A stretch of DNA of 64,000 bases, from contig NZ_CP011267.1 of assembly GCF_001006045.1 (NCBI RefSeq), forward strand, positions 1 through 64,000. Reading direction: 5' to 3'. The translations under genes and the position numbers were made by a program. The first letter of the stretch is position 1. Every line of letters starts with the position of its first letter. The notes under the pieces are model-generated. The model searched no databases, was not told the origin of the DNA, and worked only from the letters and a program-made list of their open reading frames with translations. Of the stretch, positions 16,438-22,056 are shown piece after piece. The stretch comes from Geoglobus ahangari. Its GTDB lineage: Archaea; Halobacteriota; Archaeoglobi; Archaeoglobales; Archaeoglobaceae.

Positions 16438-16511
16438 GCCGCCGTAGCTCAGCTGGTCAGAGCGGGTGACTTGTAATCACCAGGCCGCGGGTTCGAATCC
16501 CGCCGGCGGCT
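16438..16511 (+). tRNA. tRNA-Thr(TGT)
   Basis: Cloverleaf of 74 nt: acceptor GCCGCCG pairs with CGGCGGC, the D arm is GCTCAGCTGGTCAGAGC, the anticodon loop is CTTGTAA with anticodon TGT, and the T arm is GCGGGTTCGAATCCCGC. Discriminator T; CCA is not encoded. The 3' half is the likely integration target of the adjacent element. Confidence 0.96.
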
Positions 16512-17338
16512 TCCAATTTATTTTTAGAACAAGAAGAGAGCAATTTTAATTTTGCAGTTACCAACGTCGTTGGTAACCTTGAAGACTTTCAAGTTTATTG
16601 CAATGAGATTTATTCAGAAGACATGCAAGGAAATTATACAACTTAATGAAAAGATATGGATTAAAAATATTAGAAAATCAAAGAAATGCGGTGATTCTTG
16701 CTAATTTGGGTAGAAGAACGGCAGAGTATGTTATCGTTGCTTTATCAATTTATCAAAAATTTATGAGACTGAATGGCATCGATATTGAACTTGATAAGGA
16801 ATTGTTAAAGAAACATGTAAAAAAGGAGAGACAATAAAGATATTTTGATTACGAAGAGGATGAGAGTATAATTGAACAAGCGCTTGAAATGATTGAAAAA
16901 GTAAAGGGAAAACGAAGATTATTTACAATAACAGCATTCTTTACTGGATTGAGAGGAAAAGAATTAATTTTGCTATTCAGAAACTGGAATTCTTTGAGGA
17001 AAAAAGATTTTGAAGAAGTTGAAGTAATTGAGACGGGTTTTATCAGAAGGATAAAGAGAAGTTACCTTACGATGGTGCCAAAACAATTAGCAGAGCAAAT
17101 CGAAGAATGGAGATGTGGAGATAGAATAGTAGAGAATTTATGCAAGGAAGGAGTAAAAATCAGCCTATTCAGAAAAGTTCACGTTGCAGTCTTAAGCAAA
17201 ACAATGATGCCCCACGAAATAGATTTGTTGCAGGGAAGATTGGATTCTATTCTTGTTAAGCACTATGTTAAACATTTAAGAGAAATCGCAGAGAAATACT
17301 GGAGAGCCTATAAAGAATTCTTATTTTTATTTTCTTAA
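16512..17338 (+). pseudogene. int: SSV-type tyrosine integrase, broken (frameshift plus in-frame stop)
   Basis: A frame open from the anticodon region of tRNA-Thr (about 16470) reads out of the tRNA as NLFLEQEES, then NLEDFQVYCNEIYSED to about 16643. One base appears missing there; the next frame continues MKRYGLKILENQRNAV. A single TAA at 16835-16837 interrupts it, and the same frame goes on through FFTGLRGKEL (active-site Arg) to MMPHEIDLLQGRLDS and KHYVKHLREIAEKYWRAY, which holds the nucleophilic Tyr. The order matches archaeal SSV-type integrases, whose gene contains the attachment core and is split on integration. No start codon exists on the element side, consistent with an int(C) half. 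It is almost certainly inactive as sequenced. Confidence 0.78.
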
Positions 17339-17542
17339 AAACCTGAACAGAAATAAAAACACAACTGATAAGGCAGAAAAGAAATAACCCATTTCAACAT
17401 CCACACCACGCATAATATAGCGCAATGCTAAAAGAAGAACAATTACAATCATAAGATATGGAAATAAATTAACTGCTTTCTGCTGAGTGATGTATTCCTG
17501 CTTTACCGCTATTTTCTCCTCTCTTTCATAATTTATAATCAT
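17327..17542 (-). CDS. Small membrane protein (71 aa)
   Basis: 71 residues: a charged N-terminus (MIINYEREEK), a first hydrophobic helix at 27-42 (FPYLMIVIVLLLALRYI), a short loop, and a second helix at 50-68 ending in RFLRK. It overlaps the upstream ATPase gene by four bases (17539-17542), so the two form an operon. The ATPase partner suggests a membrane-anchoring role. No family is recognised. Its end overlaps the convergent integrase end by 12 nt. Confidence 0.6.
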   Translation of the reverse strand: MIINYEREEKIAVKQEYITQQKAVNLFPYLMIVIVLLLALRYIMRGVDVEMGYFFSALSVVFLFLFRFLRK

Positions 17543-18196
17543 CTGCTTGATTTCAAGCGGTGTTTTGCCTCCTTCTTTATTTTCTTTATTTGTTTATCAT
17601 CTAATTTTACACCGTAAATTTTCTCCATCTCCTGAATTATACTATCTTTTTCTTCATTGCTTAGCTCTGGGAATTCAAATTCTTCCAAAATCCAAAGCAA
17701 TCTTTTGAATTCAGGCTTTTTATACAGTTTTTGATAATAGGGCTTTGTTGCTACTAAAATCAATGTTATGGCTTTCAAATCCTCTTTTGTTTCAGCACTT
17801 TCTTCTATTGTGTTCAATAAATAGTTTAGAATTAGGGCAATTCTTTGATTTGCTAAATGGAATTCATCTATGATTAAAACTATCCTCTTCCTTTTCTCCT
17901 TTAAAACTCTTATCAGTTCATCGCATAATTCCCAAATTGCCATTCTTTTATATTGCTTTTCGTTTTCTTCTCCCTCCAATTCTAATAGAATCCTTAACAA
18001 AATCTGCTTTGGTGGTTTTGGATCGTGGAAATAAAAGATATGGATATTACTTAATTCCAAACGCTTAATCAGATAAGTTTTTCCTGCTCCATGCTCTCCA
18101 ATTAAAAATAAATGCTTTCCTTCCTTTGCATGTTCTTTTATCCCTTCTAAAATCTTTTCTCATATCATTCTCTTTTAGCATCGGCATTATTTCCAT
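17539..18196 (-). pseudogene. AAA/P-loop ATPase of the element, 5' frameshift
   Basis: The long frame gives 173 residues with Walker B-like RIVLIIDEFHLAN near residue 60. Upstream in the same frame, but without a usable start, is Walker A GEHGAGKTYLIK (18050-18090). Further upstream, ATG 18196 opens MEIMPMLKENDM in another frame, and a one-base shift near 18155 would join the parts into about 215 residues. This looks like an archaeal plasmid or virus ATPase of the ORC/Cdc6- or TniB-like P-loop type, with a role in replication or DNA handling. As written it is frameshifted close to the start. The dyad at 17605-17619 lies inside it. Confidence 0.6.
17605..17619. repeat. Copy 1 of element dyad (TTTTACACCGTAAAT)
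   Basis: Core TTTACACCGTAAA matches the dyad found four more times in the element. This copy lies inside the ATPase coding sequence. Confidence 0.6.
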
Positions 18197-18308
18197 AATC
18201 GCCGATGCAGTAAACCTTCAAAAATCCATTGAAAATAAACTTACTTTTAGTTAAATCTCTGCAGAATACTGGCTGGAGAATCTCACCATTTAATTCTCCT
18301 TTACAAAT

Positions 18309-18343
18309 GCAGTTTGCCGATTGCTTTAGTAATGGCAAACTGC
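18309..18343. repeat. Perfect 10-bp inverted repeat with 15-nt loop
   Basis: GCAGTTTGCC at 18309-18318 and GGCAAACTGC at 18334-18343. It lies inside the 18165-18907 coding region. It could be a hairpin, a protein-binding dyad or the scar of a short palindromic insertion. Confidence 0.5.
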
Positions 18344-18371
18344 TTAAATATTTGTTTCTGATTTTTATTGA

Positions 18372-18386
18372 GTTTACGGTGTAAAT
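18372..18386. repeat. Copy 2 of element dyad (GTTTACGGTGTAAAT)
   Basis: Reverse complement of the core seen at 17606-17618. It lies inside a coding frame, where it encodes YTVN. Confidence 0.6.
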
Positions 18387-18757
18387 TTCCTTCTCTTTTT
18401 TGTCTATCCTTACACCCAAATAATTTATTTCCCTATCGATTTTCAAAGGAATCTCAAAATATCCATCGTTTTCAAAATGAAGTTAAAATTTGCAGGGCAT
18501 TTTTGTTTAGCCAATCCTAAAACTACGAAGTCTTTTTTCTCAAAATAAATTTCGCTTTCTATTTTTGTATATGGTAGGGTTTGCTTTATTGATCTGCTTG
18601 TTTGGTTTGCTAATTTTGATGCACTTGCCCAAGTTGATTTTTCTTCTGTTTGTTCTGCTTGTGCTTTTGTTATTGCTGTTTGATTTTTGTAAGTCTTAGA
18701 TTTTGTTTTGGATTGCTGGTTTGCAGATTGGTTCTCAAGATTAAAAATATGCTCGGA

Positions 18758-18772
18758 GTTTACAGTGTAAAC
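18758..18772. repeat. Copy 3 of element dyad (GTTTACAGTGTAAAC)
   Basis: Arms GTTTACA and TGTAAAC are perfectly complementary around a single central base. It lies inside a coding frame, again encoding YTVN. Confidence 0.65.
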
Positions 18773-18980
18773 TGAATTAACTTCAGATTGCTCCGAAATC
18801 TCTATAACTTTTTGATTAAGCACAATAGGCTCATACAGTAAGATTTCTGCATTTGAGCAGTTATCAACACTGAGAAAAACATCTGATTGATTTATTTCTA
18901 TGCGCATAAAATAAATATGGAGAATATTTAAAATGTGTATGTACGGATAGATATTTCATTTCAGAAGTTTTAATTATCCT

Positions 18981-19013
18981 AATAAAATCTTCATTTTATT
19001 GTCATAATAAAAT
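18981..19013. promoter_or_regulatory. AT-rich dyad plus third half-site in divergent promoter region
   Basis: AATAAAAT (18981-18988), loop CTTC, ATTTTATT (18993-19000), then AATAAAAT again at 19006-19013. It lies in the 176-nt gap between the divergent genes at 18907 and 19084. Suited to a regulator operator or an AT-rich unwinding element of an origin; nothing more can be said. Confidence 0.4.
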
Positions 19014-19083
19014 TTTTCTCTATTATTATATCAGCACCTACGGATAATTCATATACATTTAAATAATTTTCCTACATTCAATT

Positions 19084-19386
19084 ATGGAAGAGAAAGAGTT
19101 AGTTTGGTTGCAAGGGAAGAGGGTGGCAATAAATACACCGATCCCTTTAAAGATTCACCAGTATTGTAAAGAGAAGGAAATTAAGTTCAGCAGGTTAGCA
19201 GAGATCGGATTTTTGTCATTAATAAGGGAGAAGGAACAGAATGAAAAATTTAAAGAGTTAAAAGAAGAGTTGGAGATAAAAACACAAGCGCTTATGAAGT
19301 GGGCAGAAAAGCAGAAAGCTCTTTTGAGATTGCTTGAAGAAAAAGATGTTATCGATAAGGAAGATTTGAGGAGGATTTTACTATGA
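19084..19386 (+). CDS. Ribbon-helix-helix-like DNA-binding protein with coiled-coil tail
   Basis: 100 residues. Residues 10-45 (KRVAINTPIPLKIHQYCKEK then FSRLAEIGFLSLI) fit a beta-strand followed by two helices, the ribbon-helix-helix layout. From 48 on, a charged heptad-like helix (KEQNEKFKELKEELEIK) suggests a dimerising coiled coil. Upstream lie an AT-rich dyad and TATA-like atttaaataattt. It overlaps a 34-codon ORF by four bases. Such small repressors typically control element copy number or excision. The fold call is by pattern only. Confidence 0.6.
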   Translation: MEEKELVWLQGKRVAINTPIPLKIHQYCKEKEIKFSRLAEIGFLSLIREKEQNEKFKELKEELEIKTQALMKWAEKQKALLRLLEEKDVIDKEDLRRILL

Positions 19387-19487
19387 CGCTAAAGGAATTT
19401 TTGTTACTGGCAAGAAAACAAGCACCGCAAGGATTTAGAATAAAGCATTATCCAGTAACAAATACAGTAATGGCCATTCCTGATTGA
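19383..19487 (+). CDS. Very short ORF (34 aa) coupled to the RHH gene
   Basis: ATG 19383 overlaps the previous stop (ATGA) and the frame reads MTLKEFLLLARKQAPQG to TGA at 19485-19487. The translational coupling is the only evidence that it is expressed. No function can be proposed. It ends 2 nt before the convergent membrane-protein gene. Confidence 0.4.
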   Translation: MTLKEFLLLARKQAPQGFRIKHYPVTNTVMAIPD

Positions 19488-19489
19488 TT

Positions 19490-20234
19490 TTATTTTTTTG
19501 CAAGTTTTTTGGGAATGAATAATATTACAGCTTTTATAGTATCTGCTGGATGTAAGAACTTTCTTTCTCCTTTTATGAATAATTTTTCATTCTCTTTTAT
19601 TTTATTTATAATTTCTTTGAGTTCATTCTGATTTTTCACTAAAGCGTATAGCAAGATGTTGAAAGCTCTTCTCAAATCGTTTAGACCATCATCTCTGACA
19701 ACATATATTATAAGGAGTAGCGCCGATAAAACTAAAATGTTCTTGAAGTTCACTTTGTAAAACATTTCAAGCATGATTACGATGGTGTAATATATTGCAA
19801 ATAATCCCAAAACAAAAACTATATCTAACTTAAAAGCGCCTAATGCAAAATATCTTCGAAAATGTTGCCTACTGACATTGTCCATAACAATTAGAAGTAT
19901 ATCCCATCTAAGATAAACATCAGAAATTTCAGTAAATTTTTCCGCTTTTTTATGGAATTCCTTTCTTATTTTAGTCGAGCCAAACACCCATTTATATAAT
20001 CCAAATGAATGAATGATGAAACCCACAAAAATTCCAAGAACAATCTTTTCAGAGAGGTTTAATTTATTTAATAAATTTAAAAAAATCTATAAAAAACTTT
20101 AAGAAGGAAAATTCCTTAAGATATTCTGGAAACGGTGCATAACCAAACAGAAAGACTAGTAGAACGCCGGGGAAAATGTATCGCAACAATTCATAAAGCT
20201 CAAATCCACTAAATATATTTTCTCCATTACCCAT
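19490..20234 (-). pseudogene. Element membrane protein, one frameshift
   Basis: ATG 20234 with an excellent ribosome-binding site (acctcc on + at 20242-20247, that is GGAGGT) opens MGNGENIFSGFELYELLRY with a hydrophobic segment FPGVLLVFLFGYAPF, ending at a TAA after a run of seven T. With six T the frame would join NKLNLSEKIVLGIFVGF and continue through the 178-residue frame to 19490. That frame has two further hydrophobic stretches (FVLGLFAIYYTIVIML; ILVLSALLLIIYVV) and a lysine-rich C-terminus. The intact protein would have about 248 residues and three or four membrane helices. Function unknown. Confidence 0.55.
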
Positions 20235-20335
20235 TCAATTAACCTCCGATTAGTTTTTACTGAAATATCCTCGTTGAATTAGATTTTTAATTTTTTGTTG
20301 TAATCTTTATTATTGCCTCTTCCATAAAAAGTTTC

Positions 20336-20397
20336 GCCGAGCCTCACATGCCTAACGGCATCGTGTCGTTGCGGGGTCTCCTCACGAACGGCTCGGC
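20336..20397 (+). ncRNA. Structured 62-nt leader RNA candidate, copy A
   Basis: GC-rich island in AT-rich DNA. Helix P1 is GCCGAGCC (20336-20343) with GGCTCGGC (20390-20397). Hairpin P3 is CACATGCC (20345-20352), loop TAAC, GGCATcGTG (20357-20365) with one bulged base. Hairpin P2 pairs TCGT (20366-20369) with ACGA (20384-20387), has a TGC bulge and an inner stem GGG/CTC closed over GTCTC. Copy B has the same fold and length with compensated changes. TATA-like ctttattatt lies about 25 nt before P1, and the ATG of a zinc-ribbon ORF follows after exactly 12 nt without a Shine-Dalgarno. It is likely a 5' leader with regulatory function. Confidence 0.72.
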
Positions 20398-20409
20398 TTA
20401 AGTTTAAAC

Positions 20410-20547
20410 ATGAAAATGTTAAAGGAAGACTGGGAAGAAGGAGAAAAGAAATGTATCATCTGTGGAAAAAGAATGCTGGAAGTAGGGGAAATATGTAAAG
20501 AATGCATGGAGAAGGAGCAGGAAATGATAGATATCGATTTTCCTTGA
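20410..20547 (+). CDS. Zinc-ribbon-like small protein (45 aa)
   Basis: 45 residues, acidic, with CIICGKRMLEVGEICKEC (residues 15-32), a CxxC...CxxC zinc-ribbon-like array. The ATG is 12 nt after structured RNA copy A and has no ribosome-binding site of its own. A 37-nt gap carrying dyad copy 4 separates it from the next gene. Small zinc ribbons of this kind in archaeal elements usually bind nucleic acid or a protein partner; its function is unknown. Confidence 0.6.
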   Translation: MKMLKEDWEEGEKKCIICGKRMLEVGEICKECMEKEQEMIDIDFP

Positions 20548-20568
20548 TTTTCTTTTTTTATTTTTGTA

Positions 20569-20583
20569 GTTTACACCGTAAAC
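20569..20583. promoter_or_regulatory. Copy 4 of element dyad next to a start codon (GTTTACACCGTAAAC)
   Basis: Six-base arms GTTTAC/GTAAAC ending one base before the ATG at 20585 of the winged-helix-like gene. The position is that of an operator covering the transcription or translation start, so autoregulation by this small protein is plausible. Confidence 0.6.
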
Positions 20584-20584
20584 T

Positions 20585-20812
20585 ATGTTGGAGAAACTTG
20601 AAAAGCTGGCTTATCTGGATTTGCCCAAAAAGTCTGGATTGAATCTCGGTTTGCGATTAATTAGAATTTTAGTTCTAACCAATAAATTAAAGGTTTGCAA
20701 TGTTCACGAATTAATCAAAGAATACCGCAGAGAATTCAAGGAGAATTTGAGTTTTATTTCTGCTTTAAATTATCTTTCATTGCTTGCGAAAGCAGAATTA
20801 ATAGGATTTTAA
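20585..20812 (+). CDS. Small helix-turn-helix-like protein (75 aa)
   Basis: 75 residues, helical and basic. The segment LRLIRILVLTNKLKVCNVHELIKEYRREFK followed by LSFISALNYLSLLAKAELIGF is compatible with a winged-helix domain, the second part resembling a recognition helix and wing. Its ATG lies one base after the perfect dyad GTTTACACCGTAAAC, so it may repress its own expression and bind the other copies. Fold inferred by eye; no family named. Confidence 0.5.
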   Translation: MLEKLEKLAYLDLPKKSGLNLGLRLIRILVLTNKLKVCNVHELIKEYRREFKENLSFISALNYLSLLAKAELIGF

Positions 20813-20870
20813 GAAAGAAAAGATATGTTTAGCAAGAATAAAAGGTATCTCATAAGGTTTATTGCTTAAA

Positions 20871-20884
20871 GTTTACGTGTAAGC
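20871..20884. repeat. Copy 5 of element dyad, imperfect (GTTTACGTGTAAGC)
   Basis: One base shorter and with a changed arm end; intergenic, between the convergent genes ending at 20812 and 20905. It may be a diverged site. Confidence 0.4.
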
Positions 20885-20904
20885 TAAAAAAAGAAAAACA
20901 AAAA

Positions 20905-21179
20905 TCAAAAACCCAATTTTTCTTTAATTCTTGCTATTTCTCTCCAAATCTCTCTTACTGCGAATTTATATCTTACAAATTCAATTTCTTCTAACTTCTC
21001 TATTAATTTGCTTGCTTCTTCTTTGCTTAATTCATTTATCTTTTCTTAAAGTGCGCATTTGCTAATTCCTCGACTTCTTTCCTTGTTAATCCGCAATTCC
21101 TTGCTATTGCCATTATGCACTTATACTGCTTTGTTGTTGCCTTCTCATCTCCCCTCTCCTTTCCATTTATTTTTACCAT
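20905..21179 (-). pseudogene. Small element protein downstream of RNA copy B, one frameshift
   Basis: ATG 21179 lies exactly 12 nt after structured RNA copy B. The first frame gives 47 residues (MVKINGKERGDEKATTKQYK, then CIMAIARNCGLTRKEVEELA) and stops at 21036. A one-base indel in the A-rich stretch near 21045 would continue into EKINELSKEEASKLIEKLEE and end at 20905, for about 90 residues. The pattern of a short helical repeat followed by LSKEEASKLI resembles the C-terminal domain found in many phage and element proteins. Function unknown. Confidence 0.5.
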
Positions 21180-21191
21180 GCTTTAATTTGC

Positions 21192-21253
21192 GCCGAGCCG
21201 TTGCCGAGAAAACCTCGCAGGCACGCAATCGCTTTAGCGATGCGAGGCTCGGC
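21192..21253 (-). ncRNA. Structured 62-nt leader RNA candidate, copy B
   Basis: On the minus strand this folds as copy A: P1 GCCGAGCC/GGCTCGGC (extendable by one C-G pair), P3 CGCATCGC, loop TAAA, GCGATtGCG with the bulge at the same position, and P2 TGCC/GGCA with bulge TGC and inner stem GAG/CTC over GTTTT. Six base pairs differ from copy A by double compensating substitutions. The ATG of the next gene is exactly 12 nt downstream (21179), and a TTTTAAC box lies about 25 nt upstream. The only non-Watson-Crick pair in either copy, G-U in copy A, supports this reading direction. Confidence 0.72.
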
Positions 21254-21273
21254 GATGTTTATTATGGAAAAAG

Positions 21274-21548
21274 TTAAAAGAAAAATCTAATTCCTATCCT
21301 TCTTTTTAATGAAAACATACAGCAGAAAAGCGCATTTATCTTTTTAGCCGACTTAATCCCCTTCTCAACTTCTTCTTTTGTTATTTGCCATTATACTTGC
21401 ATTCTACCAACCAAATCTGATTTTTATTAATCACAATTAAATCGGGAAACTTTGATTTTCCCTGCCTAATTACCAAATCAAAACTCATTTCAAGCCATTT
21501 TTTGCATTTTCTTTCGAATTTGTATTCTTTTTTATATTTATTTACCAT
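21274..21548 (-). pseudogene. Holliday-junction-resolvase-like nuclease, one frameshift
   Basis: ATG 21548 reads MVNKYKKEYKFERKCKKWL, then FDLVIRQGKSKFPDLIVI and WLVECKYNGK before a stop at 21381. The Glu in FER, the Asp in FPDLIV and the ECK form the PD-(D/E)xK site in the spacing of archaeal Hjc. One missing base near 21387 would join WQITKEEVEKGIKSAKKI, the C-terminal helix typical of the fold, ending at 21274. The intact protein would have about 90 residues. Element-borne Hjc-like enzymes resolve replication or recombination intermediates. Its 3' end overlaps the promoter of RNA copy B. Confidence 0.6.
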
Positions 21549-21975
21549 AAATATTGTCTTTGTTATCTTTTTTAGATTTTATTCTGAATATTACATGAGA
21601 TAGAGAAGCTATTGTTACCGCTAAGCTGATAATTGCGAGGCTAAAGAGGACTAACGCATATGAAGGACAAATATATCCCCATAATAAAACTTCCAATTGT
21701 AAGCACACCTGAAAATGTAGCGAATACTATATCCCAATTTGTTTCTCCACCTACTTTGTATTCAACATGAGCACCGTGCACTCCTGGTGATATTTATAAA
21801 TCCAACTATCGAACCTATGAAAGAAGTCTCTTAATGTTCTATTGGCCTCATCATATTTTCCAATTAAATAACCTATCCATATATCTTTTTCATTTAAATC
21901 TTTGATTAAAAGTTCTATCTCTTCTGGTAATAGTAAATTTAATAGTAAATTCAATCTTTGGGAAATATTTCTCAT
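21538..21975 (-). pseudogene. Small membrane protein broken across three frames
   Basis: Frame 1 (ATG 21975) encodes 74 residues with a leucine-rich start and acidic helices (LLPEEIELLIKDLNEKDIWI). Frame 2 (about 21641-21787) continues HVEYKVGGETNWDIVFATFSG with a hydrophobic stretch. Frame 3 runs from about 21670 to 21538 as SYALVLFSLAIISLAVTIAS plus a lysine-rich tail. The joined product would be about 145 residues with an N-terminal soluble part and two transmembrane helices. It overlaps the start of the Hjc-like gene. Two indels are required, so this is decay or poor sequence. Confidence 0.4.
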
Positions 21976-22056
21976 TTTTGTTTCTAAACGGAAAACAGCA
22001 CAACATCACCCAGAAGTCCAAAGCCTGTTGGAAATACGCCTTTATCACAATACAAA

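What the first reader, a model, noticed from the sequence alone, without database searches (positions are those of the whole stretch)
20336..21253. Two covarying 62-nt structured RNAs upstream of small element genes
Copies at 20336-20397 (+) and 21192-21253 (-) have identical length, the same 8-bp closing helix (GCCGAGCC/GGCTCGGC) and the same three-way junction: P3 of 3 bp, a single bulge, 5 bp and a TAAM loop; P2 of 4 bp, a TGC bulge, 3 bp and a 5-nt GTYTY loop. They differ at 17 of 62 positions. Twelve of these are six fully compensated base pairs, one turns A-U into G-U, and four are in loops or the bulge. The G-U pair supports the proposed strand. Both end exactly 12 nt before an ATG with no Shine-Dalgarno, and both have an A/T box about 25 nt before P1. 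They are GC-rich islands in AT-rich DNA. I do not know a described RNA class with this fold. Possible roles: riboswitch, translational control leader, or trans-acting RNA of the element.
Basis: seen in the sequence. Interest (0 to 1): 0.92.

Follow-up and report, generated by a model that had tools for sequence, protein, structure and literature searches.

The report
Paired structured RNA leaders, archaeal element
Two genes of a decaying virus-like element in the heat-loving archaeon Geoglobus ahangari are each preceded by the same 62-base folded RNA, whose paired bases changed in step in both copies, so the fold is real and probably controls how the two genes are translated, but no third copy was found in any collection I could search.

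Summary
Both 62-nt copies fit one 24-pair three-way junction with no mispairs. Of 17 differences, 12 form six double compensations, 2 are pair-preserving wobble changes (one wobble per copy) and 3 are unpaired; 0 of 400,000 random 17-mutant versions keep all pairs. The copies lie in a 5.5-kb AT-rich, frameshifted element at the 3' end of tRNA-Thr, with an SSV-type integrase remnant; the genome is Geoglobus ahangari 234 by length. Both end exactly 12 nt before a start codon. Both genes lack a Shine-Dalgarno and a leaderless-type promoter, so the fold must be transcribed as 5' leader if they are expressed locally. A shared 13-nt box lies 60 and 40 nt upstream: distance to the promoter varies, distance to ATG does not, favouring a translational role. 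Rfam has nothing; covariance models find no further copy in 59 Archaeoglobi or two samples of about 390 Halobacteriota, and patterns none in IMG/VR or GTDB. Best reading: an orphan cis-acting translational leader shared by two element genes. Riboswitch, trans-RNA, DNA site and ribosome docking remain open. No expression data; two copies only. Real structure about 0.95; leader mechanism about 0.5.

The parts
16438..16511 (+). tRNA-Thr(TGT), integration site of the element
   Evidence: ARAGORN and Rfam; sister genomes G025 and G026 match the window up to the end of this tRNA and then diverge
16512..22050 (.). integrated, decaying mobile element (about 30% G+C against 50% in flanks); right border approximate, no second att site found
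   Evidence: composition and att search, sister-genome comparison, frameshifts
16889..17338 (+). C-terminal piece of SSV-type (archaeal virus) tyrosine integrase
   Evidence: PF16795 E=8.4e-11; phrog_5127 integrase E=1.8e-9
20276..20288 (+). shared upstream box GAATTAGATTTTT (promoter-like, 6.7 bits with the genome's BRE/TATA matrix), 60 nt before P1 of copy 1
20336..20397 (+). copy 1 of the 62-nt three-way-junction element
20398..20409 (+). 12-nt linker to the start codon, no Shine-Dalgarno
20410..20547 (+). gene 1: 45-aa protein with CxxC...CxxC (zinc-ribbon-like)
   Evidence: weak zinc-ribbon hits in Pfam
21036..21179 (-). gene 2: 47-aa start of a frameshifted small protein (about 91 aa if read through to about 20910); weak resemblance to the tail domain of phage RecT-like proteins
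   Evidence: phrog_2780 E=0.004, phrog_286 E=0.001
21180..21191 (-). 12-nt linker to the start codon, no Shine-Dalgarno
21192..21253 (-). copy 2 of the 62-nt three-way-junction element
21281..21293 (-). shared upstream box GAATTAGATTTTT, 40 nt before P1 of copy 2, the distance at which this genome's promoter motif precedes leaderless start codons

Best explanation
A duplicated cis-acting 5' leader RNA. Each of two small genes of a virus-like integrated element is transcribed from an upstream A/T-rich promoter; the first or near-first 62 nt of the mRNA fold into a three-way junction (invariant 8-bp P1; P3 with a 1-nt bulge and UAAM loop; P2 with a UGC bulge and UYU loop), followed by a 12-nt open linker and an AUG without Shine-Dalgarno. 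The fold acts on translation initiation in a fixed register to the start codon, most likely as the binding site of one common RNA-binding factor (encoded by the element or host) that couples expression of the two genes. Shown: sequence, fold, compensatory evolution, position, absence of SD and of leaderless promoter. Inferred: transcription, forward strand, translational level. Guess: the identity of the factor.
For: Covariation and slide controls. The UGC bulge, the UAA of the P3 loop, the two Us of the P2 loop, the junction residues and all of P1 are invariant while mid-stem pairs swap freely, the pattern of an RNA recognised through loops and junction. Two wobble pairs, one per copy, pair only on the gene strand. 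The -45 to -33 window of both genes lies inside the GC-rich fold and scores -12.6 and -4.2 bits as promoter, and there is no SD, whereas several other element genes have a leaderless promoter (6-8 bits) or GGAGGT; so the fold must lie in the mRNA if the genes are transcribed locally. Distance to ATG is constant (12) while distance to the shared upstream box changes by 20 nt, which fits a function tied to the start codon rather than the promoter. The 62 nt are not coding: in the open frame through the copies 9 of 12 changed codons are nonsynonymous (counted).
Against: No transcript data. Only two copies, which are paralogues in one element. The promoter boxes are weak (3-7 bits, no better than random element DNA, mean 4.8) and the upstream homology is only moderately significant (58/2000 shuffles). 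Constant spacing may be simple inheritance from the duplication. At 88 C the predicted fold is marginal (-2.8 and -4.7 kcal/mol), although the cell's own tRNA-Thr scores the same (-4.7). The element is decaying and may be silent.
Confidence: 0.5

Rival explanations
1. Structure-dependent ribosome recruitment: the three-way junction itself docks on the 30S subunit and replaces the Shine-Dalgarno, placing the AUG 12 nt downstream at a fixed distance.
For: No SD and no leaderless promoter; fixed 12-nt spacing; a review reports that SD-less leaders were not translated in a Sulfolobus cell-free system although SD-less leadered mRNAs occur (PMC7531240). P2 carries GRGGU in both copies, which can pair with the 16S 3' end ACCUCC (seen at L190).
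Against: No precedent in archaea that I found; GRGGU is mostly paired inside P2 and short enough to be chance.
Confidence: 0.18
2. Small-molecule riboswitch controlling the two genes.
For: Compact junction with conserved unpaired residues upstream of two genes.
Against: No Rfam match even among E<=10 hits; restricted to one mobile element, both genes are tiny element genes, no metabolic context; no alternative expression platform visible.
Confidence: 0.08
3. Stand-alone trans-acting or structural RNA of the element (two loci), processed from or ending near P1.
For: Self-contained fold closed by a strong 8-bp helix, at a possible transcription start.
Against: No terminator-like T-run after P1 (both linkers run directly into AUG); constant link to start codons of genes.
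Confidence: 0.12
4. DNA-level element: cruciform or single-strand hairpin used as protein-binding, replication or recombination site, e.g. an inverted pair of ends around 20336-21253.
For: Copies are inverted and flank about 0.8 kb; the opposite strand folds as well (-30.9 and -31.1 kcal/mol); P3 on the opposite strand resembles IS200/IS605 end hairpins (GCTTTAGC loop with one bulged base), and a chance-level haloarchaeal model hit looks like such a hairpin.
Against: No Y1 transposase found in this genome, no TnpB in the element, the only convincing TnpB locus has no similar end, two wobbles fit the gene strand only, the fixed distance to ATGs has no reason in this model; IS605 ends are not inverted (general knowledge).
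Confidence: 0.12

Closest known systems
L7Ae k-turn leader (archaeal translational autoregulation; PMC5539422)
   Same: Structured RNA in an archaeal 5' leader bound by a protein to control translation; the motif is used on more than one mRNA.
   Different: That leader is a k-turn with G-A pairs masking an SD; here the 3-nt bulge is followed by Watson-Crick pairs (G38-C48) and there is no SD.
Phage translational operators (e.g. of T4; general knowledge, review PMC3014915 listed, not read)
   Same: One RNA fold placed before genes of a mobile element, giving control by an element protein.
   Different: Those mostly overlap the SD or AUG; here a three-way junction ends 12 nt before AUG; no binding protein known.
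Ribosomal-protein leaders and riboswitches in Rfam 15
   Same: Multi-helix leader with conserved loops.
   Different: No family matches; genes are not ribosomal or metabolic.
IS200/IS605 ends and omega RNA
   Same: P3 on the opposite strand looks like their bulged hairpin with a TTTA loop.
   Different: No TnpA or TnpB here; inverted copies; rest of the fold differs.

Membership tests
Any Rfam 15 family | match at gathering score | tested here: not met
   only tRNAs in the whole window; best sub-threshold hit csRNA 23.9 bits against cutoff 57
k-turn / L7Ae leader | 3-nt bulge followed by tandem sheared G-A pairs | tested here: not met
   bulge UGC is followed by G38-C48 and R39-U47 standard pairs
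SD-sequestering leader | SD 5-10 nt before AUG that the fold can mask | tested here: not met
   linkers TTAAGTTTAAAC and GCAAATTAAAGC hold no SD match of 3 nt or more
Structured cis-regulatory 5' leader (general) | conserved fold upstream of a start codon with compensatory changes | tested here: met
Structured cis-regulatory 5' leader (general) | present in the transcript | tested here: inconclusive
   no promoter fits between fold and ATG; upstream boxes weak; no RNA data
Structured cis-regulatory 5' leader (general) | fold changes expression of the downstream gene | not testable with these tools
   needs reporter assay
Riboswitch | ligand binding by the aptamer | not testable with these tools
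   needs in-line probing
IS200/IS605 ends | Y1 transposase or TnpB associated with the hairpins | tested here: not met
   no Y1 in the genome; the only convincing TnpB is at 275 kb with no similar sequence downstream
SSV-type integrative element | archaeal-virus integrase fragment next to a tRNA gene | tested here: met
   PF16795 at 16889-17338 beside tRNA-Thr; second att site not found

The most novel reading that the evidence does not exclude
An archaeal mobile element uses a compact three-way-junction RNA to recruit the ribosome to start codons that have neither a Shine-Dalgarno nor a leaderless 5' end, an archaeal counterpart of internal or structure-dependent initiation.
Probability: 0.15. 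Interest if true: 0.85.

Novelty: new variant of a known kind. Interest (0 to 1): 0.5.

Why it matters
Few structured leaders are known from archaea and my literature searches found none described for archaeal viruses. Two diverged paralogues with six compensated pairs give a clear fold to test. How archaea translate leadered mRNAs without a Shine-Dalgarno is open (PMC7531240), and these two genes are a ready test case because both normal initiation signals are absent. If homologues turn up in vent viromes this would become a new RNA family.

Tried and rejected
Rfam at gathering and E<=10: nothing. DNA patterns built on the conserved loops and bulge: 0 in 84,980 species genomes and 0 in IMG/VR; a pattern on P1 gave 120+ and 25 hits, mostly GC-rich DNA; those tested with the model scored at most 29.4 bits against about 90 for the real copies; a relaxed P3 pattern gave 11 contigs with no model match. 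One haloarchaeal hit (28.6 bits, E=0.008 in one of 393 genomes, falling to 26.4 with the better structure) judged chance. Element proteins as bait: no relatives in Archaeoglobi, phages, plasmids or IMG/VR, apart from weak zinc-ribbon matches. Coding explanation rejected: a frame is open through both copies but no upstream ATG was seen and 9 of 12 changed codons are nonsynonymous. Mutational perfecting of palindromes (template switching) considered: it would also tend to remove the bulges, which both copies keep. IS200/IS605 origin considered and not supported. K-turn not met.

Full report
OBSERVATION. The two 62-nt copies are at the stated places. Aligned without gaps they differ at 17 positions. 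RNAfold gives the same three-way junction for each (-29.2 and -30.8 kcal/mol, z = -3.3 and -3.0), with one small disagreement about the P3 bulge. Placing the bulge at column 27 and adding a fourth upper P2 pair gives one structure of 24 pairs that both copies satisfy fully: P1 8 bp, invariant; P3 3+5 bp with one bulged base and a UAAM loop; P2 4 bp, UGC bulge, 4 bp, UYU loop. Six pairs differ on both sides and still pair, two differ on one side (G-U/A-U and G-C/G-U), and only three changes are unpaired. Sliding the partners by 1-3 columns drops pairing from 100% to 34-44%. No random mutant in 400,000 with 17 changes kept every pair of the 23-pair version, and two reached six compensations. The fold is real with about 0.95 confidence. 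Caveat: with two sequences, R-scape-type significance cannot be reached.

SETTING. The genome has 1,770,093 bases in one contig, the published length of Geoglobus ahangari 234, which grows best at 88 C (PMC4600277). The copies lie in an AT-rich block from the end of tRNA-Thr (16511) to about 22050. Two sister genomes of the genus match up to the tRNA end and then diverge. Next to the tRNA is a piece of an SSV-type integrase (PF16795), with its upstream part in other frames. Other genes are frameshifted too, including gene 2 below copy 2. So this is a decaying integrated virus or plasmid. Apart from the integrase and ATPase domains, its proteins are orphans in all sets searched.

POSITION AND STRAND. 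Each copy ends 12 nt before an ATG: a 45-aa CxxC protein and a small protein with weak likeness to phage RecT-like tails. The two wobble pairs, one in each copy, exist only on the gene strand. I built a BRE/TATA matrix from 444 kb of this genome; its commonest start is about 40 nt before ATG, as expected for leaderless genes. In that place both genes have the GC-rich fold itself, scoring -12.6 and -4.2 bits, and neither has a Shine-Dalgarno; several other element genes have one or the other. Any local promoter must therefore lie upstream and the fold must be in the mRNA. Upstream, both copies share GAATTAGATTTTT, 60 nt before P1 in copy 1 and 40 nt in copy 2, and TTCCATAA starting 16 nt before P1. 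These boxes are weak and the homology moderate (58 of 2000 shuffles as good). The spacing to the promoter box varies, the spacing to ATG does not.

MECHANISM. Free swapping of stem pairs with invariant bulge, loop residues, junction and P1 suggests recognition of the fold by a partner. Position at a fixed distance from an SD-less AUG suggests the level of translation. I commit to a cis-acting translational leader, most likely an operator for a common RNA-binding factor (0.5 for the leader as a whole; the factor is a guess). A ribosome-docking role is the most interesting rival (0.15-0.18). Folding at 88 C is predicted marginal, but the genome's own tRNA-Thr is predicted equally weak, so this does not count against it.

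DISTRIBUTION. Models R1 and R2 find only these two copies in the genome (R2 over 444 kb), none in 59 Archaeoglobi (40 genomes of the family with lax filters), one chance-level hit in 393 Halobacteriota and none in 392 haloarchaea (a set that overlaps the former). Patterns find no true copy in IMG/VR or GTDB. Strict filters and two-sequence models lose distant relatives, and Thermococci and Thermoproteota could not be reached with the models.

KNOWN KINDS. Works like: protein-controlled leaders such as the L7Ae k-turn leader (PMC5539422) and phage operators. Member of: none of the families tested. It is not a k-turn, not SD-masking, not in Rfam, and not an IS200/IS605 end by the tests made.

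Noticed in passing
17604-17620, 18371-18387, 18757-18773, 20568-20584: A 17-bp palindrome AGTTTACNNNGTAAACT (up to 2 mismatches) occurs four times in the element; the last copy directly abuts the ATG at 20585 of a 75-aa gene, so it looks like the operator of an element repressor.
   Followed up: partly
17539-18907 (-): Genes of the element are broken by frameshifts, including an AAA-type ATPase whose Walker A region appears to lie in another frame.
   Followed up: no
20285-20325 (-) and 21264-21287 (+): On the other side of both folds, 10 nt beyond P1, an ATGGAA opens tiny ORFs (MEEAIIKITTKN and MEKVKRKI) on the opposite strand; the shared TTCCATAA box is this ATG read backwards. Probably chance, but it would matter if the opposite strand were transcribed.
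   Followed up: partly
L017 1501-1560: A haloarchaeal hairpin that looks like an IS200/IS605-type end matches the model at chance level; P3 shares its bulge and TTTA loop on the opposite strand.
   Followed up: partly
20336-20397 and 21192-21253: One reading frame is open through both copies (AEPHMPNGIVSLRGLLTNGSA and AEPRIAKAIACLRGFLGNGSA) although changes are mostly nonsynonymous.
   Followed up: yes
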